From Thermoproteota archaeon (GTDB lineage: Archaea > Korarchaeota > Korarchaeia > Korarchaeales > Korarchaeaceae): 64,000 nt of DNA. The notes beneath the pieces are model-generated. The model did no database searches. It saw only the letters and a list, made by a program, of their open reading frames with translations, and was not told the origin of the DNA. The position numbers and the translations under genes are program-made. The stretch spans positions 1-64,000 of the forward strand of contig JAOZFI010000006.1 in assembly GCA_027491395.1 (NCBI GenBank). The letters run 5' to 3'. The first letter of the stretch is position 1, and each line of letters begins with the position of its first letter. This document shows, one piece after another, positions 876-17,267 of the stretch.

Positions 876-1187
876 GTGATCATATTGAAGATATATGGGA
901 TTGAAAGAGAGTTATTTGCACTTTCTCTCGCAATCCTGTTAATACTGCCGTTAGCAGCCAGTATACCAAACTCCATGGGTGTCTGGATAGGGACCTATGT
1001 AAGAACGTGGTCTATGAAGCGTGCTCACAGGATGGCTAGCTGGGCGCTTGATCAGATTACCGATCCCATCGGATGGGCAATAGGACACCATACTTGGTAC
1101 ACACGCCTCACATCTATTGCACTCATAGCTTATAGTGGCATTGGACCTTATTACGCGGCATTCACGATAGGATTCACTGTAGGGTGA
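876..1187 (+). CDS. small hydrophobic precursor peptide (bacteriocin-like candidate)
   Basis: This is a 103-residue unknown protein. Residues about 12-30 form a hydrophobic, signal-like segment containing ALSLAILLILPL, followed by a small Gly, Trp, Tyr and His-containing region of about 70 residues that ends in a second hydrophobic stretch and a terminal Gly. The GTG start sits at the predicted transcription start. Its stop overlaps the GTG of the next gene, a SpoIIM/DUF95-like protein, so the two are translationally coupled. DUF95 proteins are known partners of circular bacteriocin precursors such as enterocin AS-48. Length, leader and context make a secreted or circularised peptide the best guess, but no family was recognised by sequence. 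An ordinary small membrane protein is the alternative. Confidence 0.6.
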   Translation: MIILKIYGIERELFALSLAILLILPLAASIPNSMGVWIGTYVRTWSMKRAHRMASWALDQITDPIGWAIGHHTWYTRLTSIALIAYSGIGPYYAAFTIGFTVG

Positions 1188-1726
1188 CAGAAATTATTAG
1201 AACATTCTGTTTACCTGAGTTTTTTATTCTAATCATTTATCTATCATCGTTTGTTGTAGGTACATGGTACACCTTTAACGAAAACGGCGCTCGGGATGGA
1301 TCCTTCCATCTGAAGGATATTAAAAATATTAATATAAATTACCTTGATTTCATCAGGATGATATTGTTAAATAATTTAGTGGCAGGTATCTTAATCATTG
1401 TGGGAGGATGGTTGTTCTGCATACCGACTCTCTTAGTCCCCATAGCTTCGGGTTACTTTGCTGGGCTTTACTTTGGAGCCGCTTACAGAGCTTATGGACT
1501 CTTCATTTCCTTAATTTTGTATATCCCCATGCCCTTGGAGATAGCCGCCATAGTTATCCTAGGTCATGTATCCTTCAAGCTATGTAAGGAGAACCTCAGG
1601 AGATTAAGGGGAAACGACTCGGATGCTCCTTTGCTCAGAGGCCATATTAAATCTATCACATACGGTATTTTCCTCATAGTTGTAGGTGCTGTGATTGAGA
1701 CGATTATTCAATTCTACATCGGTTAA
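1184..1726 (+). CDS. SpoIIM/DUF95-like membrane protein
   Basis: This 180-residue protein has about five predicted membrane segments. The central part carries the DUF95/SpoIIM pattern: an NN pair in a helix (LLNNLVAGILI), a Gly-rich stretch (GYFAGLYFG), then a helix beginning PMPLEIAA where other members have HGxxE. Family members are integral membrane proteins of unclear mechanism. They occur in sporulation loci and in circular bacteriocin clusters, where they act in maturation, export or immunity. It is the second gene of a six-gene operon and overlaps its neighbour by four bases. The assignment rests on pattern recognition; a profile search would settle it. Confidence 0.6.
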   Translation: MTEIIRTFCLPEFFILIIYLSSFVVGTWYTFNENGARDGSFHLKDIKNININYLDFIRMILLNNLVAGILIIVGGWLFCIPTLLVPIASGYFAGLYFGAAYRAYGLFISLILYIPMPLEIAAIVILGHVSFKLCKENLRRLRGNDSDAPLLRGHIKSITYGIFLIVVGAVIETIIQFYIG

Positions 1727-1778
1727 ATTCATGAATGAGATCGCCAGGGGAGATTTATGAGGCTATTCTTTTTCCTTC

Positions 1779-2345
1779 ATGCTGGTGCTCCTCACGGGAA
1801 TCATGGTATACCTTTACTTCACTATGCCGTTCTTAAAGCCCAGTACCTCCACATACGCCGAAATGGATGTCCGCATTATAAGGGGATCTTTCCTACTTAC
1901 TCCGGTATTTTCCAGTCTCATAGTCGTCCTGATATGGGCTGTGGAATCTTCTTTAGCCTCGCTCGTCATCAGAAGATCGGTGAGAGGGGCGGAAAGGTCC
2001 CACATAAATTTAGGCGTTATAATGAGCGAATTTTCCTTGAGATACGTTCCTGAATTTATCTTCCTCCTCATAATAGTCCCGCTCGTATGGTTCAACCTCC
2101 CTGAATACACAGTGACCTCTGTGAAGGAGCTTATTAACGCATCTAAGAGCCTAGGAGAGTCTCCACTATACGTAAACGGGATGCTCGCTCTGATTGCTGT
2201 ATCCATATCTCGCTATCCCATATACGCAGCCATACTCAGATACAGATTGGATATAGGATGGAGGGAGACCCTCACTATCATCGCCCTGCTTATCATTGTT
2301 GATACACTCATAGCTTTGTGGGGAGGAGGGTTTCGGCTTAGGTAG
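1779..2345 (+). CDS. multi-spanning membrane protein, Yip1-like architecture
   Basis: This 188-residue protein has about five hydrophobic helices and was not recognised with certainty. A stop codon lies shortly upstream in frame, so ATG 1779 is the only normal start. Topology and spacing of motifs resemble the protein at 13222-13821: a basic loop after the second helix (RRSVRG versus YRSVYKG), then a late loop with IGWRETLTIIALLIIVD matching GMKREDGVAMILMLLLTD. Both follow a SpoIIM-like gene, so the two are probably homologous. Yip1-domain proteins have this size and helix count, but that label is tentative. It may be an immunity or export component. Confidence 0.5.
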   Translation: MLVLLTGIMVYLYFTMPFLKPSTSTYAEMDVRIIRGSFLLTPVFSSLIVVLIWAVESSLASLVIRRSVRGAERSHINLGVIMSEFSLRYVPEFIFLLIIVPLVWFNLPEYTVTSVKELINASKSLGESPLYVNGMLALIAVSISRYPIYAAILRYRLDIGWRETLTIIALLIIVDTLIALWGGGFRLR

Positions 2346-2360
2346 GGGGGTGAGTTAGGC

Positions 2361-3008
2361 ATGAGAACTGAAGATAACCTCATCTTAGAGGTTATAAGGA
2401 TAAGTAAAAGGCTCGGGAAGAGACAGGTGTTAGCAGATGTGAGCTTCGACGTGAGGAATGGAGAGGTAGTCCTCATAAGGGGGCCCAATGGGTCGGGAAA
2501 GACGACGCTTCTAAGAACCATTGCTGGGGTGTTTAGACCAGATTCCGGCCGAGTACTCCTATTGGGAAGAGATGTTCATGAGGACCTGGGTGTGAGGAGA
2601 GAAATTAGTTACTGTCCTGAGAGGCTAGGCCTTCTTGGGGATTACACAATCGAGGATAACATGGTGTTCTTTACCAAGGTGTTCGGGAGATCGTTCGACG
2701 AGCACAGATTTAGAGAGTACGTGAAGGGGTTTCAGCTCGAGGGATACTCGGATGACAAGGTATCCAAGCTCTCGGCTGGGACGAGGAAGAAGGTGGCTAT
2801 CATCAGGACTCTCGTCTTCCCAGCTAGGCTGTACCTGCTTGACGAACCACTAGCTAACCTAGACGATGAGAGCGTGAGCTTTTTAATTGAGGAAATTAGG
2901 AGAATGGCCGATCTAGGATCTTCCTTCCTGATATCTTCTCACATAGAGTTCCCGGCTGCTGATCGTGAATTAGAGATGAGAGGTGGGGGACTTGTCGAGG
3001 TTAGGTGA
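2361..3008 (+). CDS. ABC transporter ATP-binding protein
   Basis: This 215-residue nucleotide-binding subunit energises export or import by the two permeases encoded next to it. The Walker A motif is GPNGSGKTT near residues 39-47, the signature loop is LSAGTRKKVAI rather than canonical LSGGQ, Walker B is LYLLDEP, and the H-loop is SSH. The degenerate signature and short length are common in ABC-2-type peptide and drug exporters. It starts at ATG 2361, 15 bases after the preceding gene, and its end overlaps the first permease. With the upstream small peptide and SpoIIM-like genes, it plausibly exports the peptide or protects the cell from it. Confidence 0.88.
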   Translation: MRTEDNLILEVIRISKRLGKRQVLADVSFDVRNGEVVLIRGPNGSGKTTLLRTIAGVFRPDSGRVLLLGRDVHEDLGVRREISYCPERLGLLGDYTIEDNMVFFTKVFGRSFDEHRFREYVKGFQLEGYSDDKVSKLSAGTRKKVAIIRTLVFPARLYLLDEPLANLDDESVSFLIEEIRRMADLGSSFLISSHIEFPAADRELEMRGGGLVEVR

Positions 3009-3726
3009 CCTAATAGCGGGTCACCTCTACCTAATGGGTGGATTGACCAATGTCAGGGAGATCTTCGTGTTCTTGAGCCCACAGATCCTGTTTTTGGCAC
3101 TAGCTGAGGTCATAGCAGGATCCAGGACGTATACAGAATTATTGATGGTTACTTCGTTGCTTGAGAGTTTTTCCTTAGTCATTACGTATATTCTCCTTGG
3201 TATCGTGGTGCCGGGGAGGCTAATCAGATTAAGCTACTCGATGAGAGATGCCGGAATGATGGAGATATTCCTGAATCAGGGGGTTGGGTTGGATCAGGTA
3301 TTGCTGTCTCTCTGGATCGGTTCGTCCCTAAAATACTCCTTATACGTGATTGCAGGAAGCCTGATAGCCCTGCTCTCTTTATACCTAGCTGGATGGATGA
3401 CAGTAGTCGAATTCCTAACGGCATTGGGCGTGATCGCCGTCATGGTCACACTCTTCTCGGCAATTTGCATTACCCTATCTCTTATCCTTCCTCCCAGTGA
3501 AGCTCAATACTGGTCTCAATTAGTCTTTTTCCTGATCTTCGGATATTTATACTTAGGTTTCCTCAATCCCCGGAATTACAATGATATCGTGAGGCTCTTC
3601 TTGGGCGGATACTTAAACCCCATGTCGCTGGGTGGAGGGGCCATAGCAACCTTTCTCGTAATAGTTTTACTGATAGGATTATCTGAGGAGAGGGGGGATA
3701 TTATTGAAATTGATGAGGTTAAATAA
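2983..3726 (+). CDS. ABC transporter permease subunit (first)
   Basis: This 247-residue integral membrane protein has about six hydrophobic helices and lies directly downstream of the ATPase gene, overlapping it by 26 bases when read from GTG 2983. An ATG at 3034 is a plausible alternative start that would remove the overlap. No family motif was recognised beyond the ABC-2-like layout. It probably forms a heterodimer with the protein at 3704-4390, because both are similar in size and share one ATPase gene. Substrate is unknown; the operon context suggests the hydrophobic peptide encoded at 876-1187. Confidence 0.65.
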   Translation: MGDLSRLGDLIAGHLYLMGGLTNVREIFVFLSPQILFLALAEVIAGSRTYTELLMVTSLLESFSLVITYILLGIVVPGRLIRLSYSMRDAGMMEIFLNQGVGLDQVLLSLWIGSSLKYSLYVIAGSLIALLSLYLAGWMTVVEFLTALGVIAVMVTLFSAICITLSLILPPSEAQYWSQLVFFLIFGYLYLGFLNPRNYNDIVRLFLGGYLNPMSLGGGAIATFLVIVLLIGLSEERGDIIEIDEVK

Positions 3727-4390
3727 TCTAAATGCCCAAATCTCCTTGGAATTGACTTTGCTTGTAAGGGGTAGGGGAAAGAGGATCGGGTGGTTAATTA
3801 GGGTACTTGTAGTCTCCATGGCTGTGCTGTCGCTGGGTCTGCTAAGCTCACTGGAGTTGGGTGATCTCAAAAACATTTACTTGTCGCTCCCGGGTGTATG
3901 GCTCCTGTCTTCAGCCTTGATGATGGATAATACGGTTGAGATAAAGAATAGCGGTCTTGCTGAGATCTTGCTCCAGACATATGGGCCTTCATATTTGGGT
4001 GTGAGGTATCTCCTATATACTGTGGTAACGATACCCCTATCAATATCCTTTATTTTGCTGGGAGGCTCTTCAGTTTCACTAATGGTTGGGGTAGGATTAT
4101 CAGGTTTGGATGTCATTCCCTTGCTATCTCTCTCCGTCATAGGTTCAACGGCTTTAATGACCGTTACAGTCTTATTATCGGTGAAAATTGGTGGCCTGAG
4201 GTTATTAGACACATTTTCCCTAGCAAGTGGCGGACTTACCCTCCTCCTGATCATTTCCATGCCTTTTATATTGGAGGCGCTAAAGCAAGAGGTGCTTGCG
4301 TGCATGCTGCTCGTCGGGACATTCTCCATAGCTGCTCTGACTACGGTGTACCTTATGAAACATGACTTTCCGGCATTATTAACGGTCTAA
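3704..4390 (+). CDS. ABC transporter permease subunit (second)
   Basis: This 228-residue membrane protein has about six hydrophobic helices and is the last gene of the operon, overlapping the first permease by 23 bases. The N-terminus carries a basic cytoplasmic stretch (LLVRGRGKRIGW) before the first helix, as in ABC-2-type permeases. It was not assigned to a named family. The overlapping arrangement with 2983-3726 and the single ATPase indicates a heteromeric transporter. The next 400 bases are non-coding, which marks the operon end. Confidence 0.65.
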   Translation: MKLMRLNNLNAQISLELTLLVRGRGKRIGWLIRVLVVSMAVLSLGLLSSLELGDLKNIYLSLPGVWLLSSALMMDNTVEIKNSGLAEILLQTYGPSYLGVRYLLYTVVTIPLSISFILLGGSSVSLMVGVGLSGLDVIPLLSLSVIGSTALMTVTVLLSVKIGGLRLLDTFSLASGGLTLLLIISMPFILEALKQEVLACMLLVGTFSIAALTTVYLMKHDFPALLTV

Positions 4391-4794
4391 TGCTTCAATA
4401 TTCCTCTCACATTTCCCCCTCTATCTGCATTAGGTTAAAGCGTGCAAGGGCTTAGAAAACTAGATGTTCTGGAGGGATTGAGAATTCTAAGGATTTAATC
4501 AGAGTATAATCTGAGGAGAGCCTTAGTCGGAGTAGTCTTGTACTTGTAGTCCCCGGAACGAAGCGCTTACACACACCGCTCATCAAGCCCCCTCCACAGT
4601 TGCCCTGATTGAGGTGCATTAGCAAACATGACCTACTGACGCTATTAGCGATCTCAGCTCACGACGAACACGATACCTTCCTTCCACGTTTCTTCTAAAT
4701 CTCCAGTCATCACTCAAGGAGTTCGTTAGGGGTTCATCGTAGATCTTCGGAAACCCATTAAATATTCCTAGGGGCTAAAACGTGTAGAACCCTC
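4391..4794 (+). other. intergenic stretch between peptide operon and HEPN-MNT pair
   Basis: No convincing gene, repeat or RNA was seen. The end of the stretch contains TTAAATATT at 4758-4766, a TATA-like motif about 30 bases before the HEPN start at 4795. Confidence 0.5.
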
Positions 4795-5208
4795 ATGAGG
4801 GATGAAGCCAGAAGGTGGCTCTCAGAGGCGAGATGGGATCTGGAGACCGCCAGAATACTGCATGATAGAGGGAGATACAACGCCGCTTGCTTTTACGCTC
4901 ATCAGGCTGCGGAGATGGCTGTCAAGGCTCTTCTAATAAGTAGAAACGAGTCCCCGTGGGGCCACGGTGTGAGGGCCCTGCTCGAAAGGTATTCTGAAAT
5001 CAGTGGTGAGGACGTGTCCCACCTCCTGCCTCATGCTAGGGAGCTGGATAGGCACTACATACCCTCCAGATACCCGAACGCCCATCCATACGGGACACCT
5101 CACGAGGCGTACGATGAGCCTACCTCCATGAGGGCCATCGAAAGCGCGGAACTAATATTGGATTACGTGAAGGACAGGTTGGATGGATCTCAGGGAGTTA
5201 GTGAATAG
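4795..5208 (+). CDS. HEPN-domain toxin (HepT-like ribonuclease)
   Basis: This 137-residue protein is the toxin half of a HEPN-MNT module. The N-terminal helical part (DEARRWLSEARWDLETA and ACFYAHQAAEMAVKALL) is typical of HEPN domains. Arg92, His97 and Tyr99 form an intact Rx4HxY motif (RYPNAHPY), which in HepT proteins is the RNase active site. The gene overlaps the nucleotidyltransferase gene by 26 bases in the usual toxin-antitoxin order. A TATA-like motif near 4762 implies an almost leaderless transcript. The known family mechanism is RNA cleavage blocked when MntA adenylylates the HEPN tyrosine; that this pair works so is inferred. Confidence 0.88.
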   Translation: MRDEARRWLSEARWDLETARILHDRGRYNAACFYAHQAAEMAVKALLISRNESPWGHGVRALLERYSEISGEDVSHLLPHARELDRHYIPSRYPNAHPYGTPHEAYDEPTSMRAIESAELILDYVKDRLDGSQGVSE

Positions 5209-5593
5209 GATAAGGAGGAGATACAGGGTCTACGCGGTCATACTGTTCGGTTCACGAGCTAGGGGAGACTGGCTCCCTCATAGCGATTACGACCTCTTGG
5301 TCGTGGCCGACTTCCGGGAACCCTTCCTAGACAGGATCTACGAGCTCTCGGGACTGACTAAGGGCCCCGTGGAATTCCACCCCTACACCCTTGACGAGGC
5401 GAAGGAATTACTGAGGAGAGGCATTACATCGATCGTGGATGCCCTCGAGGAGGGCATCGTTCTCTACGAGGGAGAGGAGTTCAGGGAGGTGAGGGAGCTT
5501 TTCGAGGAGATGAAAAGGAAGGGGCTCAGGAGGAGCGGTGTATCGATCATATTGCCCAGGGCTAGAGGCAATCAACCGAGGCCACTCTCATGA
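5183..5593 (+). CDS. MNT-domain nucleotidyltransferase antitoxin (MntA-like)
   Basis: This 136-residue minimal nucleotidyltransferase has an intact GSx10DxD motif: Gly23-Ser24, ten residues, then Asp35-Tyr36-Asp37 within LPHSDYDLLV. In the MntA family this domain transfers AMP to the tyrosine of the partner HEPN toxin and neutralises it. It overlaps the toxin gene by 26 bases, so expression is coupled. The C-terminal 25 residues are basic and poorly conserved-looking. It closes the operon; the next gene is on the other strand. Confidence 0.88.
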   Translation: MDLRELVNRIRRRYRVYAVILFGSRARGDWLPHSDYDLLVVADFREPFLDRIYELSGLTKGPVEFHPYTLDEAKELLRRGITSIVDALEEGIVLYEGEEFREVRELFEEMKRKGLRRSGVSIILPRARGNQPRPLS

Positions 5594-5634
5594 CTTCCAC
5601 CTGACCGGGAGTCTGGTGTTCCCCTTTTCTCCTA

Positions 5635-6549
5635 TCATCCCCTCAATACGCTTCTAACGTCGGATATGAAGATCTGAGGTGTGTTACAAGATCCCAAGCA
5701 TCCACAGTAGCTGTGGTAGGGGCATGGATCCCTCTTCGTGTGGGTCATCATGTAGCTGGCGAACATGATGCCCCTTAGATCCCTCAGCTCCAGCCCGCAC
5801 GTACCGTTAACCAAAGTGTTAGCAGAGCCGCACGATCCCCCGCAGTTAGCTGCGGGCTCCCTGCCCGGTAGGGTGATCAGCGCTACGCCCTCGCCCATGC
5901 CCAAGAACCTCGCCCTGAAGATCATGTGAACGTCGCATGCTGTGTGGGGTGGTTCCTGCCTCGTGCACCCGCTTGCCCTGCCACGCTCATAGTAAAACCA
6001 CCAGACATCTCCTTCGGGGTGCACGAGCCCATGATATATCTCGTTGCACCTCCACATCCCATCTCCGTAACCCTCTGACGGTCCGCCAATCCTCCTCCAC
6101 CCCCTCTCCTCCCTGACCCAGAGATCAGCCACCCCTCTCAGGGGATCCAAGAGGGTCGACGGTAGGTCGGCGAAGACTCTGGAAGGCACGCTGCGGGAGG
6201 CCAGCTCCGACGCTAGCATCTCGATATAGTGAATGTCGTGACTCCCGTTGAGGGACCATATGATAACGAACGGGAGGGTCCTGTTGATTCGCTCGGCGTA
6301 ATCGAGCAGCTTCCTTACCTCTAACCTGTCGAACTTGAGTGGGGGGACGACGAGTATGAGGGAACCTAGCTTCCTCCCATATCTCTCGAACACCTCCTTC
6401 TCCTTAGCGTAGTACTCAACGTCAGGGAGGGATTTGAGAAATATCTCCTTTACAGGATTCCCCCTGGGGACCAAGCTTAAGATCAGTCCACCGATGAGCA
6501 GGAGAAGGAATAGGGCATTAAGATCTCTTCTATCGATCGTGGGATCCAT
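5635..6549 (-). CDS. membrane-anchored, cysteine-rich extracellular protein of unknown function
   Basis: This 304-residue protein was not recognised. A single N-terminal hydrophobic helix (ALFLLLLIGGLILSLVP, residues about 12-28) is followed by a soluble domain without further membrane segments, so the bulk is probably outside the cell. The C-terminal half is rich in cysteine: about eleven, including NCGGSCGSAN and CPYHSYCGCLGSC close to the end. Clustered, roughly even-numbered cysteines in an exported protein suggest disulfides; a metal or FeS site is another possibility. It stands alone between the toxin-antitoxin pair and RNase P RNA. Confidence 0.6.
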   Translation of the reverse strand: MDPTIDRRDLNALFLLLLIGGLILSLVPRGNPVKEIFLKSLPDVEYYAKEKEVFERYGRKLGSLILVVPPLKFDRLEVRKLLDYAERINRTLPFVIIWSLNGSHDIHYIEMLASELASRSVPSRVFADLPSTLLDPLRGVADLWVREERGWRRIGGPSEGYGDGMWRCNEIYHGLVHPEGDVWWFYYERGRASGCTRQEPPHTACDVHMIFRARFLGMGEGVALITLPGREPAANCGGSCGSANTLVNGTCGLELRDLRGIMFASYMMTHTKRDPCPYHSYCGCLGSCNTPQIFISDVRSVLRG

Positions 6550-8838: not shown

Positions 8839-8937
8839 CGTTGTTATGGGTGGTCTATGCATTTTAAACCTAATTATGCGTTACATATAATTACACATAA
8901 TAATTATATAACTCTACCTCCGAAATTATGGGTGCGC

Positions 8938-9957
8938 ATGATAAGCGAGAAGCTATGGAGTCAGAAGGCTACTCCTGGAGGGAGACGCATCCCTCATGAC
9001 ATCAGAGTGGAACTCTACTTTTTCGTTAGAGAGCTTCGTGATAGAGGAATGAGCTACCGTGAGATTCAGAGAATCGTGGAGAGAGAGCGCGGTATCAAGA
9101 TAAGCAGGTCTCACATATCCTACTGGATTCGTGGCCTCCATATCCCGTTAAACGAGCCATACAATCATGTCGATACTTCCAAGGAGAGAGAACTGGCTTG
9201 GATAGCAGGGATGTTCGTAGGGGATGGTTCCATAAAGATCAACAGAAAGGGTCACTTCTTGGTACTGAAAGTCAAGGATAGGGAGCTAGCGGAGGCTGCC
9301 GCTGATAAACTGGCGGTTGTTCTGGGAAGGGGGGAGAGGTACGCGGTAAACAGGATGGGGGACGGTAGGTACTACGTGCAGGTCCAGTCGAGGGAACTAG
9401 TCGACCACTTGAGAGCGTGGGAGAACATTCTCTCGCATCTAGAGAGAAGTCCTAGAGAGTTCATTCAGGCATTCTTAGACTGTGAAGGCGGACCTATAGG
9501 ACATATCAGTGCATCTGGCAGGTTCTTCGCTAGAATAGATGTAGATAATACCGATAGGAAGTTGCTGGAGGCCGTGTCCCTGAAGCTCTCTAATATGGGG
9601 ATTATATCAACCGTTTCGATTCATTATCCCAAGGGAAAGGTTTTCGTGACTAGGAAGGGGAGATCTGTGGCTAGAAGAAACTGTTACTTCTTGAGGATAT
9701 ACAGGCAGGATAGCATCGTTAGGTACTGGGAGGAGGTTGGGTTTGTCGCCCTAAGGAAGCGGGAGAAGTTAGAGGACATAGCTTACATCCTCTCTAATCT
9801 CGGATCCGGGTGGGAGGCCGCCGTGGAGTGGATCAGGAGGTACGAGTATAAGAGAGGGATGGGTCGCCAGAGGTGGTTCAGAAGGAAGAGGTTCCTTGAA
9901 TGGGAGGATGCTCTTGAGGAATATGAGAGGTTCTTGGCCCGTAGGTCAAGCGATTAA
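8938..9957 (+). CDS. free-standing LAGLIDADG homing endonuclease with N-terminal HTH
   Basis: This 339-residue protein carries two LAGLIDADG helices, LAWIAGMFVGDGS and PREFIQAFLDCEGG, each ending with the acidic catalytic residue. The duplicated layout implies a monomeric enzyme that cuts long asymmetric sites. Before them is a helix-turn-helix-like region (GMSYREIQRIVERERG then ISRSHISYWIRG). The start at ATG 8938 follows a TATA-like TAATTATATAAC near 8898-8910; an upstream start at 8857 would lie across that promoter. It is not inside an intein or a visible intron, so it is either a solo mobile gene or a domesticated regulator. Confidence 0.85.
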   Translation: MISEKLWSQKATPGGRRIPHDIRVELYFFVRELRDRGMSYREIQRIVERERGIKISRSHISYWIRGLHIPLNEPYNHVDTSKERELAWIAGMFVGDGSIKINRKGHFLVLKVKDRELAEAAADKLAVVLGRGERYAVNRMGDGRYYVQVQSRELVDHLRAWENILSHLERSPREFIQAFLDCEGGPIGHISASGRFFARIDVDNTDRKLLEAVSLKLSNMGIISTVSIHYPKGKVFVTRKGRSVARRNCYFLRIYRQDSIVRYWEEVGFVALRKREKLEDIAYILSNLGSGWEAAVEWIRRYEYKRGMGRQRWFRRKRFLEWEDALEEYERFLARRSSD

Positions 9958-13221: not shown

Positions 13222-13821
13222 TTAGGGATAGGGTGCGTTATTTTTTAATAATTGTTGGGCAGCAACCTTTGGATAATATATTCTCAGCACTATGTCTGTC
13301 AAAAGAAGCATGAGTATCATCGCTACACCGTCCTCCCTCTTCATCCCATATCTATGATTGAAAACGCGATAGAAGTAGATGAAGGATAGAGTCGAGAAGG
13401 AAGTATCGATTAGCGCCTTGATTGATGAGTATAGCTCGATACTAGATGCTCCTATAATGGGAAGAAGCACCAGATCCGTTATCAGTGATATAGACGAAAA
13501 GAGAAAGTAAAAAGACACAACACCCAGTATTGGGGAGAGTGGGCCCTTATACACGCTTCTATAAAACAAGAAGAGGTAAGTTAGTGCTCCCAGCAGGCCC
13601 CAGAGTAGGGCTCCGGTGAAGCTGCTTCCTAACAACACAAAATATGCGATAACATATGGGGGAATGGATTGATTGGCTACACCCAGCTCGTTCAGGACGA
13701 TCATTAGGTACAAGGATTGAGTACCCGTGTAGAGCAGGTATAGGAGAAGGGGCCTTCTCCTATTGGATGGAGGGTTATTGTTAAGCAGATCCGGATTTTC
13801 TTCTCTTCTACGTATGGCCAT
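13222..13821 (-). CDS. multi-spanning membrane protein of the second peptide locus, Yip1-like
   Basis: This 199-residue protein has a charged N-terminal tail rich in Arg and Asn, then about five hydrophobic helices. It is the last gene of a four-gene operon and overlaps the SpoIIM-like gene by 14 bases. Helix order and loop motifs match the protein at 1779-2345 (YRSVYKGP and GMKREDGVAMILMLLLTD). The equal position in two peptide loci suggests a conserved partner. The family assignment (Yip1-like) is tentative; immunity, export or processing are all possible roles. Confidence 0.5.
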   Translation of the reverse strand: MAIRRREENPDLLNNNPPSNRRRPLLLYLLYTGTQSLYLMIVLNELGVANQSIPPYVIAYFVLLGSSFTGALLWGLLGALTYLFLFYRSVYKGPLSPILGVVSFYFLFSSISLITDLVLLPIIGASSIELYSSIKALIDTSFSTLSFIYFYRVFNHRYGMKREDGVAMILMLLLTDIVLRIYYPKVAAQQLLKNNAPYP

Positions 13822-14341
13822 TTAACTTCACCAAGATGCAAGGTATTGAGAGATAATATTCTATAACTGATGATGATATTATCATAATTAAACTTAATAA
13901 CGCTAATTTTGTTAAATAAACTAAATGATCTCTGGAGAGGTCGTAGGGATCCCCGCCATGGATTACCGTTACGGCGCTCGAAAGACCTACGGATGAGGAT
14001 ATGAGGATGGAGGTGATCTCCAGCGGCCCGTGGAATAGAAAGCAGGGGAGTGCACCTGTCAAGTTTTCTCTGAGAATTTCCCTAAAGATGCTACCTACCA
14101 CCATGCCGTTGAAGCTAAGGGAGAGAGCCGTGAGCGTTCCAAGTGTCACATACCCTATGGAAAGAATCAGGATAACGGAACTGTTCAAGAGGATAAGTCC
14201 GCGTAAATTATAATGTCCATTAAAGGGATGAGGAACAAAAACTCCACCTGACCCTTCCGTGTAAGATTGATCTGGGATCAGGAAGCTTCCTAAGATCCCG
14301 GCCGCATAGAAGAGCGATGCTAAGATCAGTCCCTCACTCAT
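13808..14341 (-). CDS. SpoIIM/DUF95-like membrane protein of the second peptide locus
   Basis: This 177-residue protein shows a clear SpoIIM/DUF95 signature: a helix with small residues (GTLTALSLSFNGMVVGSIF), then CFLFHGPLEITSILI carrying the HGxxE motif, in a four- to five-helix protein. DUF95 members accompany circular bacteriocin precursors in bacteria. The start at 14341 is preferred over 14368 because it leaves a tight eight-base overlap with the protease gene. The operon order peptide, M48 protease, SpoIIM, multi-spanning protein parallels 876-2345. Confidence 0.7.
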   Translation of the reverse strand: MSEGLILASLFYAAGILGSFLIPDQSYTEGSGGVFVPHPFNGHYNLRGLILLNSSVILILSIGYVTLGTLTALSLSFNGMVVGSIFREILRENLTGALPCFLFHGPLEITSILISSSVGLSSAVTVIHGGDPYDLSRDHLVYLTKLALLSLIMIISSSVIEYYLSIPCILVKLNGHT

Positions 14342-15305
14342 CCTCGGGCCTTGTTTCGTCCCTACCATGGCTCATCCTCCTGATGATCTCTATTCTCTTC
14401 TCCAAGCTAGGATGCGTTGGAAGTAGGGAGGGGGTTTCCTTCATTCCATATATTTTGATCAGAGCGTTTATCAGATCCTCTGGATTTGAGTAAGATGCTG
14501 CAATGAGATCGGCCTTCACCTCCCTCCTCCTTATCAGGATTAAGAAGACCGACAACGCTGCCAAGAAGCCAGTCACCACTAGCAGAAAGCTTACGGGATC
14601 GCGTGTCGTTACTGTCCCCGTTAAGGAGGAGAGTACTTCGCCTACAAGGAGTAGCATCGCGTACATCAGTAGTGTGTAGCCCAGATACCTGACGATGTCT
14701 CCTTCTTTATAATGGGCGAGCTCGTGGGCCAACACGCTCTTGATCTCTCCATTAGACAGCACCTTAAGCAGATCCTCATTTACGAAGACAGTTGGTTGAA
14801 TGATTCCCCCAAGAAGCGTAGTTTTCATTAGAGAGGATCTGAATAATCGGAGCCTTATATCCTTCCTGATCCCCATCTTTCCCTTAAGATCCTCGAAAAC
14901 CCTCTTCAGATCATCTGGGGGATCCTTTCCTTGACCAATCTTATCGAAAATTAAGGGAACCAGATTAACCGTGACGAACAGTACTACGAGAAAAGTGGAG
15001 AATTCGACTAGGATGCTGTGGCTGGGAAGTGAGGAGATTACAGCAGCATAGATGAAGATTAGATATAAATCGAAGTAATTGAGCAGGAGATCCTTGAATA
15101 ATCTCCTAGTTCCCGGGCTTTCCTTACTCAGAATAGAGTCCATAAGAGAGAGAATTATGGCAGTTAGTATCAAGATTACGAATCCAGTTATAAGAGGGTT
15201 AAGCCCATAATTAACCACGATGAATACACTAAGGGACATCATAGCTATGGCTATGAGAGCCATCACCAAGTTGTAAAGAGAAAAAAATGTAGGATTAGTT
15301 CTCAA
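14334..15305 (-). CDS. M48-family membrane metalloprotease (HtpX-like)
   Basis: This 323-residue integral membrane zinc protease has four N-terminal hydrophobic helices. The soluble domain contains HELAHYKEGD, the HExxH zinc site with catalytic Glu, in the context VLAHELAH. The third ligand is probably Glu in RRREVKADLIAA about 75 residues later, between further hydrophobic segments. HtpX proteins normally degrade membrane proteins. Here the gene sits ten bases behind a small hydrophobic peptide gene and overlaps a DUF95 gene, so it is a good candidate for removing the leader of the peptide. The housekeeping HtpX role is the alternative. Confidence 0.88.
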   Translation of the reverse strand: MRTNPTFFSLYNLVMALIAIAMMSLSVFIVVNYGLNPLITGFVILILTAIILSLMDSILSKESPGTRRLFKDLLLNYFDLYLIFIYAAVISSLPSHSILVEFSTFLVVLFVTVNLVPLIFDKIGQGKDPPDDLKRVFEDLKGKMGIRKDIRLRLFRSSLMKTTLLGGIIQPTVFVNEDLLKVLSNGEIKSVLAHELAHYKEGDIVRYLGYTLLMYAMLLLVGEVLSSLTGTVTTRDPVSFLLVVTGFLAALSVFLILIRRREVKADLIAASYSNPEDLINALIKIYGMKETPSLLPTHPSLEKRIEIIRRMSHGRDETRPEDE

Positions 15306-15315
15306 TACAGATCCC

Positions 15316-15561
15316 TTACCCTATTAGGAAACTACCTACTGCTACAAGAGCGCCGGCTAAACCCGTAATTGGAGTACTGCATGCTGCTATTTTTGCTAGG
15401 GCTAAGAAGTACCCTCCTAGTGCCACTGCAGCTGCTCCATAATTACCTCTAGCAAGTAGATAGCCTACTCCCAACTGAGTTGCTGCAGGTGTTAATATAG
15501 GAAGTACCAATATTGCTATATTGAGGGCGAGAAGGGCTAGGGCTTTCTTTTCTGCCTCCAT
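15316..15561 (-). CDS. small hydrophobic precursor peptide, second locus (bacteriocin-like candidate)
   Basis: This 81-residue protein begins MEAEKKALALLALNIAILVL, a charged N-terminus and hydrophobic leader, then a Gly- and Ala-rich region with one cysteine that ends in GSFLIG. The leader motif ALNIAILVLPIL is very like ALSLAILLILPL of the peptide at 876-1187, and both proteins end in a hydrophobic pair plus Gly. GGGGGTGAT just before ATG 15561 is a good ribosome-binding site. It is the first gene of the operon with the M48 protease and SpoIIM-like protein. Mature size after leader removal would be about 55 residues, in the range of circular bacteriocins. Function is inferred from context only. 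Confidence 0.6.
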   Translation of the reverse strand: MEAEKKALALLALNIAILVLPILTPAATQLGVGYLLARGNYGAAAVALGGYFLALAKIAACSTPITGLAGALVAVGSFLIG

Positions 15562-16289: not shown

Positions 16290-17267
16290 TCACCTTTCCC
16301 TTGACCTCCTAACCGCTCTACTCCTAAGCCTTCCCACCTCTTCCTCCGGAATGTACCACCTGCCAGCCAGCTTGACCGCCTTCAAGTACCCCTTCCTAGC
16401 AAGCTGCCCCAAGTAGTCGACGCTCATCCCAAGCTCCTTGGCCGCCGTCGATAGGAGAACCATGCCCTCCAGCGATCCCAGGTAGAGGGTCAGGCTCTCG
16501 TCCACCGCCCTCGCCACGAGGTTAGTTATGGGTCTGGCCCTTCCCCTGTCGGCCTCCTCCAAAGCCATGTAGTAGGCCCTCCGCCTCTCCTTCCTTATGA
16601 TGGCCAGTGGGTAGCCCCGTCTCAACAGGAGGAGGTTCATCAGGAGCCTGGCCACCCTCCCGTTCCCATCGGTGAAGGGGTGTATGGCCGTGAGGTAGGC
16701 GTGGGCCACGGCAGCCAGCTCGATCGGATGGAGTTCATCGGAATTCATGGCGCCGTTCAACCAATCAACGAACCTCCTCATCAATCCCGGTACTTCCGAG
16801 GGAGGGGGAGGTACGTGACCCGATCCACCGATGAAGACCTGTTCCCTCCTGTACTCGCCCGGTCTCGCTTCCCATATTCCCATCATCACGAGGTGGTGCA
16901 GCTTGAGTAGGTCGAACTCCTCCACCCTCTCAGCGCGAGAGAGATCCTCCACGTACCTCAGAGCTTGAAGGTGGTTCCTAGCCTCCAAATGATCTCTCAG
17001 GGGCTTTCCTGCTACAGTTATACCCTCCTCTAGCACGAGCCTCGTCTCCCTGAGGGTGAGGATGTTCCCCTCTATGGCGTTAGTGTTGTAGACGTACTCT
17101 ATCGTCAGGAGGTTCCTCAGCCTAGCTAGGGCCTCTCTGCTGAGCGGACGCTCGGAGCTGATTCTCTTGAATCCCTCCTCTATCCTCGCCATGAGCGCCG
17201 GGGCTATCAGCGGGGACCTAGCTTGTTCCAGCAGGAGAAACCTGTATCGACTAATCATGCTTTCCAT
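16290..17267 (-). CDS. Fic-domain AMP-transferase family protein with C-terminal HTH
   Basis: This 325-residue Fic protein has the core motif HPFTDGNGRVARLLMN, with catalytic His and the phosphate-binding Gly-Asn-Gly-Arg intact. Near residue 62 the sequence TNAIEG fits the (S/T)xxxE(G/N) inhibitory helix, which places it in class II (N-terminal inhibition in the same chain). The C-terminal 50 residues (STAAKELGMSVDYLGQLARK, then GRWYIPEEEV) form a MerR/excisionase-like helix-turn-helix. A TATA-like TTTATATAG about 25 bases upstream fits a leaderless start at 17267. The target protein is unknown. Such solitary Fic genes are mobile and often lie in accessory regions, as here. Confidence 0.9.
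   Translation of the reverse strand: MESMISRYRFLLLEQARSPLIAPALMARIEEGFKRISSERPLSREALARLRNLLTIEYVYNTNAIEGNILTLRETRLVLEEGITVAGKPLRDHLEARNHLQALRYVEDLSRAERVEEFDLLKLHHLVMMGIWEARPGEYRREQVFIGGSGHVPPPPSEVPGLMRRFVDWLNGAMNSDELHPIELAAVAHAYLTAIHPFTDGNGRVARLLMNLLLLRRGYPLAIIRKERRRAYYMALEEADRGRARPITNLVARAVDESLTLYLGSLEGMVLLSTAAKELGMSVDYLGQLARKGYLKAVKLAGRWYIPEEEVGRLRSRAVRRSRER

What the first reader, a model, noticed from the sequence alone, without database searches (positions are those of the whole stretch)
876..4390. Candidate peptide biosynthesis and export locus: hydrophobic precursor, SpoIIM/DUF95, multi-spanning protein, ABC transporter
Six overlapping or tightly spaced genes on the plus strand begin with a 103-residue peptide-like gene having a hydrophobic leader and a short Gly-rich remainder ending in Gly. 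It is followed by a SpoIIM/DUF95-like protein, a five-helix protein, and an ABC ATPase with two permeases. DUF95 plus ABC exporter next to a short hydrophobic precursor is the layout of circular bacteriocin clusters such as AS-48. An archaeal equivalent of this type was not recognised as an established family from the sequence.
Basis: partly seen in the sequence, partly recalled or inferred. Interest (0 to 1): 0.85.

Follow-up and report, generated by a model that had tools for sequence, protein, structure and literature searches.

The report
Archaeal SpoIIM-linked bacteriocin-like peptide cluster
An archaeon carries a small gene cluster that looks built to make, export and survive an antimicrobial-style peptide in the way bacterial circular bacteriocins are made, and similar peptide/SpoIIM gene sets recur in several other archaeal families, but no peptide has yet been shown to exist or to kill anything.

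Summary
Six plus-strand genes lie at 885-4390: a leader-plus-core peptide gene, a SpoIIM/DUF95 protein (Pfam E=1.6e-15), a five-hydrophobic-segment protein, an ABC ATPase and two permeases. The same six families occur in two other genomes of the genus; in one, P1 is only 53% identical, yet both ends of the predicted core are invariant. A congener keeps the last four genes at the same rRNA-adjacent site without peptide and SpoIIM; another keeps frameshifted permease remnants: a peptide cassette with a separable export/immunity module.

The window holds a second, unreported cluster (15561-13222, minus) with its own precursor, an M48 protease and SpoIIM. Similar pairs occur in other archaeal families, including tandem arrays whose leaders are ~96% and cores ~33% identical. 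Peptide-linked SpoIIMs, with those of bacterial circular bacteriocins, separate from housekeeping SpoIIMs in the best tree found.

Best reading: a bacteriocin-like secreted peptide, possibly head-to-tail cyclised. Not shown: cleavage site, circularity, activity, immunity. No curated family matches the peptide, and no separate small immunity gene is present. A likely key paper (Makarova 2019) was not held, so novelty is provisional.

The parts
885..1187 (+). P1, precursor peptide (100 aa; hydrophobic leader about residues 1-30, predicted core beginning at or near the conserved Ser-Met whose Met codon is ATG 975, to Gly 1182-1184; 70 aa, pI 9.7)
   Evidence: no family in Pfam or NCBIfam; the cleavage site is inferred from conservation only
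1184..1726 (+). SpoIIM/DUF95 membrane protein (180 aa); lacks the otherwise near-universal Asn (NG to SG at residue 89) and His (PH to PM at 115-116)
   Evidence: (PF01944 E=1.6e-15); AF2 model pLDDT 85
1779..2345 (+). P3, five hydrophobic segments, no family; candidate immunity or export accessory protein
   Evidence: kept with the ABC genes but without P1+SpoIIM in G009
2361..3008 (+). ABC ATPase (CcmA/ABC-2 exporter type)
   Evidence: PF00005 E=2.2e-30; TIGR01189 136.5 bits, cut-off 131.6; 27% identity over 135 residues to the AS-48 cluster ATPase
2983..3726 (+). ABC-2-like permease 1 (five hydrophobic segments)
   Evidence: (PF13346 only at E=0.38, below cut-off)
3704..4390 (+). ABC-2-like permease 2 (six hydrophobic segments)
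   Evidence: no family
15316..15561 (-). Second cluster in this window: precursor B (81 aa; hydrophobic leader; small, Gly/Ala-rich, hydrophobic core ending in Gly)
   Evidence: no family
14334..15305 (-). M48-family membrane zinc protease with HExxH (candidate leader peptidase of cluster B)
   Evidence: (PF01435 E=5.8e-22)
13808..14368 (-). SpoIIM/DUF95 of cluster B
   Evidence: E=6.6e-12
13222..13821 (-). 199-aa membrane protein of cluster B, no family

Best explanation
The cluster makes and exports a bacteriocin-like peptide. P1 is made as a precursor, its hydrophobic leader is removed, and a core of about 70 residues (inferred boundary at Ser-Met 33/34 of the 103-aa ORF) is matured at the membrane with SpoIIM. 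As in bacterial clusters where SpoIIM is a constant partner, maturation may include joining the two ends. The ABC ATPase with two permeases exports the peptide, and together with P3 probably protects the producer. Shown: gene content, conservation, SpoIIM identity, modular presence and absence. Inferred: leader cleavage, cyclisation, export, immunity, antagonistic function.
For: Six-gene set conserved in three genomes, with P1 absent elsewhere. The leader is poorly conserved while both core ends are invariant (SM-VW-GTYVRT and FTIGFT-G) between homologues only 53% identical overall. At the same 23S junction G009 keeps P3-ATPase-permeases but has no P1 and no SpoIIM there, and G008 keeps frameshifted permease remnants. 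SpoIIM tree: the label 'peptide-linked' needs 4 changes against 21.3 for shuffled labels, and holding peptide-linked plus bacterial bacteriocin SpoIIMs as one clade raises the likelihood by 9.2 (13.7 for the complementary constraint). A second peptide/M48/SpoIIM cluster lies in the same window. Analogous archaeal arrays have conserved leaders and variable cores (within-locus medians 96% and 33%) plus Yip1 proteins, as reported for circular bacteriocin clusters (PMC8659200). Reference layouts: AS-48 and gassericin A clusters; review PMC6131525.
Against: No family match for P1 and no small cationic immunity gene. The AF2 model of the core is low-confidence (pLDDT 63), so the saposin-like or helical-bundle fold is untested. 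This SpoIIM has lost two near-universal residues. The archaeal SpoIIM family has otherwise been predicted to act in membrane remodelling (PMC5898192). No expression or peptide data. Too few substitutions for a useful dN/dS on P1.
Confidence: 0.62

Rival explanations
1. Same kind of system, but the product is a linear (not head-to-tail cyclised) secreted membrane-active peptide; SpoIIM serves export or protection rather than ring closure.
For: Circularisation cannot be read from sequence. In leucocyclicin Q a SpoIIM (lcyD) knockout still made mature circular peptide that accumulated in the cell, so SpoIIM may not be the cyclase (PMC6131525). This SpoIIM lacks the near-universal His and Asn.
Against: Every described circular bacteriocin cluster has SpoIIM, and SpoIIM plus precursor plus ABC is taken as the class signature; the core ends are among the most conserved parts.
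Confidence: 0.25
2. P1 and SpoIIM are accessory subunits of an ABC transporter or membrane-remodelling complex with no secreted peptide.
For: All genes except the ATPase encode membrane or hydrophobic proteins; archaeal SpoIIM was predicted to act in membrane remodelling or vesicle formation (PMC5898192).
Against: The transporter stands intact without P1 and SpoIIM in G009. Of 20 other SpoIIM loci sampled, 19 have no such peptide upstream. Leader/core divergence in the analogous arrays is that of precursors.
Confidence: 0.1
3. The peptide is a signal or a self-targeting membrane peptide rather than a weapon against neighbours.
For: No activity data; several different peptide clusters coexist in one genome.
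Against: The orphan transporter in G009 and the decayed copy in G008 fit producer/resistant/sensitive dynamics; core size and charge resemble AS-48 (70 aa, pI 9.7 against 10.1).
Confidence: 0.15

Closest known systems
Enterocin AS-48 cluster (here on pPD1, NZ_KT290268)
   Same: Precursor with hydrophobic leader and 70-aa cationic core; SpoIIM; ABC ATPase of similar length (27% identity over 135 residues)
   Different: No family match between precursors; AS-48 has a 556-aa membrane protein, a 56-aa protein in the immunity position and a second ABC operon; here two permeases of 228-247 aa and P3
Gassericin A cluster (pLgLA39, NC_011839)
   Same: Closest layout: precursor, SpoIIM, ATPase, ABC-2 permease
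   Different: Small immunity gene described in bacteria; different precursor; one permease annotated there
Archaeal housekeeping SpoIIM (arCOG01994/COG1300) and RDD-SpoIIM fusions
   Same: Same Pfam family PF01944
   Different: No precursor upstream, other neighbours, separate part of the tree
Halocins, sulfolobicins and archaeal lanthipeptides
   Same: Archaeal ribosomal antimicrobial products
   Different: No SpoIIM link in the paper searched (PMC10105419); no family match found here

Membership tests
Circular (head-to-tail cyclised) bacteriocin clusters | SpoIIM (PF01944, DUF95) gene in the cluster | tested here: met
   E=1.6e-15; groups away from housekeeping SpoIIMs in the best tree found
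Circular (head-to-tail cyclised) bacteriocin clusters | ABC transporter (ATPase plus membrane protein) in the cluster | tested here: met
   (permeases by topology and position; no Pfam hit above cut-off)
Circular (head-to-tail cyclised) bacteriocin clusters | Precursor with N-terminal leader and hydrophobic/cationic core of about 58-70 aa | tested here: inconclusive
   Leader plus inferred 70-aa (76 in G003) core, pI 9.7/10.9, but the cleavage site is not known
Circular (head-to-tail cyclised) bacteriocin clusters | Precursor matches a known bacteriocin family in Pfam or NCBIfam | tested here: not met
   No bacteriocin family at E up to 1
Circular (head-to-tail cyclised) bacteriocin clusters | Dedicated small, cationic, hydrophobic immunity protein | tested here: not met
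   No separate small gene between 885 and 4390; P3 (188 aa) could take the role
Circular (head-to-tail cyclised) bacteriocin clusters | Saposin-like or helical-bundle fold of the core | tested here: inconclusive
   AF2 all-helical, pLDDT 63, pTM 0.34, three sequences
Circular (head-to-tail cyclised) bacteriocin clusters | N-to-C peptide bond in the product; antimicrobial activity | not testable with these tools
   needs mass spectrometry and bioassay
SpoIIM/DUF95 family (PF01944) | Score above curated cut-off | tested here: met
   57.8 bits against 26.9
SpoIIM/DUF95 family (PF01944) | Residues near-universal in the 63 proteins aligned here (N64, N89-G90, P115-H116, E119, E172); not a curated criterion | tested here: inconclusive
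   N64, G90, P115, E119, E172 kept; N89 and H116 replaced in the window; both also replaced in G003

The most novel reading that the evidence does not exclude
Archaea carry a broad, largely undescribed class of SpoIIM-dependent, leader-core (RiPP-like) peptides, probably cyclised bacteriocins: single clusters with dedicated ABC exporters in this lineage and tandem peptide-SpoIIM arrays with hypervariable cores in other archaeal families, sharing a bacteriocin-type SpoIIM lineage with Gram-positive circular bacteriocins.
Probability: 0.4. Interest if true: 0.85.

Novelty: new variant of a known kind. Interest (0 to 1): 0.62.

Why it matters
Circular bacteriocins are described, in the papers read here, only from bacteria, and the enzyme that closes the ring and the role of SpoIIM are open questions (PMC6131525, PMC8659200). 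Archaeal systems with unrelated precursors, natural SpoIIM variants that lack conserved residues, and clusters that carry their own M48 protease would give direct comparative tests of what SpoIIM does and what cuts the leader. They would also add a new arm to the little-known weaponry of archaea.

Tried and rejected
P1 in viral contigs: no relative. P1 in 84,980 species genomes: only the G001 locus was recovered. A weak P1-profile hit in G375 (E=6e-4) was rejected because it has an internal stop and lies antisense in a long ORF. P3 against Yip1 proteins and other cluster membrane proteins by profile comparison: no similarity. Permease 1 against the G260 494-aa protein: none. SpoIIM model against PDB: no match with E below 1, none by sequence. 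The core model was not searched for folds because of low confidence. dN/dS of P1 is not interpretable: 1 synonymous and 5 non-synonymous differences. The 3.4-kb G003 contig carries the genes in circularly permuted order (ATPase-perm-perm-P1-SpoIIM-P3); its ends do not overlap, so a circle, a tandem copy or two separate units cannot be told apart. Anti-phage defence models: only ATPase-domain hits. Makarova 2019 (mBio 00715-19) could not be read.

Full report
Observation. The six plus-strand genes are present and tightly packed. The second gene is SpoIIM/DUF95 (PF01944, 57.8 bits, E=1.6e-15) and the fourth an ABC ATPase; P1, P3 and permease 2 have no family, and permease 1 only a sub-threshold ABC-2 hit. 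The peptide probably starts at TTG 885 and P3 at ATG 1779, the latter because of a one-base poly-T difference from G001. Hydropathy gives one leader segment in P1, four in SpoIIM, five in P3, five and six in the permeases.

Conservation. P1 is found in 3 of 29 genomes of the phylum, all in one genus, and in no other of 394 archaeal genomes searched once one false hit is removed. Identities of G001/G003 to the window are: P1 95/53%, SpoIIM 96/43%, P3 98/33%, permease 1 100/46%, permease 2 92/46%, ATPase 96/70%. In G003 the leader diverges while the start (SM-VW-GTYVRT) and end (FTIGFT-G) of the presumed core are kept. The inferred core is 70 aa, pI 9.7 (G003: 76 aa, pI 10.9); AS-48 is 70 aa, pI 10.1.

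Site and modularity. The cluster lies directly after the 23S rRNA gene (1-681), in DNA of 45% G+C against 54% for 20-64 kb. At the same rRNA junction, G009 carries P3, ATPase and both permeases but neither P1 nor SpoIIM (its single SpoIIM match in the genome is not at this site), and G008 carries frameshifted permease remnants followed by the same HEPN gene. So peptide+SpoIIM and P3+ABC are separable modules. Absence of the peptide with retention of the transporter is what one expects of a resistant non-producer; that reading is inference.

A second cluster in the window. On the minus strand, 15561-13222 encodes an 81-aa precursor with a hydrophobic, small-residue core ending in Gly, an M48 membrane protease with HExxH, a SpoIIM and a 199-aa membrane protein. 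It is conserved in G001 and partly in G003. An M48 peptidase has been noted in two bacterial circular-bacteriocin clusters (PMC8659200). Further peptide-SpoIIM pairs occur in G001, G003 and G015.

The wider class. SpoIIM genes of several other archaeal families are preceded by leader-bearing peptides of about 76-117 aa. In two families they form tandem arrays of peptide, small membrane protein and SpoIIM, ending in a Yip1 protein (PF04893 E=8e-29). Among 18 such precursors of the array families, paralogues within a locus have leaders with median identity 96% and cores with 33%, the hallmark of RiPP precursors. They were picked by their leader motif, so the leader figure is biased upward; the low core identity is not. 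In a sample of 20 other SpoIIM loci, 19 had no such peptide.

SpoIIM tree. In 63 SpoIIM proteins the peptide-linked label needs 4 changes against 21.3 for shuffled labels, none of 500 as low. Holding peptide-linked, two unlabelled and four bacterial bacteriocin SpoIIMs as one clade gives a likelihood 9.2 higher than the free quick tree, and holding the housekeeping set together 13.7 higher (AU p 0.72, 0.80). Caveats: near copies cluster by themselves, long branches are present, the test does not prove a clade, and the exact place of the window protein is unresolved. The window and G003 proteins alone replace both Asn89 and His116, which are near-universal in both classes. An AF2 model of SpoIIM (pLDDT 85) matches no solved structure.

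Comparison with known systems. The described bacterial clusters share precursor, small immunity protein, ABC transporter and SpoIIM (PMC6131525; AS-48 and gassericin A loci). The window cluster has three of these by content, lacks a separate small immunity gene, and its precursor belongs to no known family. I therefore say it works like a circular-bacteriocin cluster and do not file it as a proven member.

Novelty. Searches of the held library for SpoIIM, archaea and bacteriocins together returned no paper whose listed hits or read passages describe such archaeal clusters. Makarova et al. 2019 covers archaeal antimicrobial peptide systems but is not held, so precedence is unsettled.

Noticed in passing
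window 13222-15561 (-): Second peptide/M48 protease/SpoIIM/membrane-protein cluster in the same window, not in the given finding; conserved in G001.
   Followed up: partly
L066 (G302:C2:456000-469000), L067-L071: Tandem arrays of up to six peptide + small membrane protein + SpoIIM units with near-identical leaders and divergent cores, followed by Yip1 and a large surface-like protein (CARDB domain in the copy tested, L083).
   Followed up: partly
L143 (G009:C13:17000-24500) 3755-6383: Orphan P3-ATPase-permease-permease module beside 23S without peptide and SpoIIM.
   Followed up: yes
L011 (G003:C25, 3428 bases): Cluster genes in circularly permuted order on a contig whose missing piece (about 0.3 kb) would join its ends; circle, tandem copy or rearrangement undecided.
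   Followed up: partly
window 1764-1775: One extra T in a poly-T run compared with G001 shifts the first codons of P3; real difference or assembly error unknown.
   Followed up: no
window 4795-5593: HEPN (PF05168) and nucleotidyltransferase (PF01909) gene pair directly downstream, a probable toxin-antitoxin type pair.
   Followed up: no
window 5635-6549 (-): 304-aa protein with many cysteines and no Pfam match, conserved in G009 beside the orphan transporter.
   Followed up: no
window 8857-9957: LAGLIDADG homing-endonuclease-like protein (PF14528), also present near the related islands in G009 and G003.
   Followed up: no
window 16290-17267 (-): Fic/DOC-family protein with a helix-turn-helix (PF02661, PF12728) next to the second peptide cluster.
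   Followed up: no
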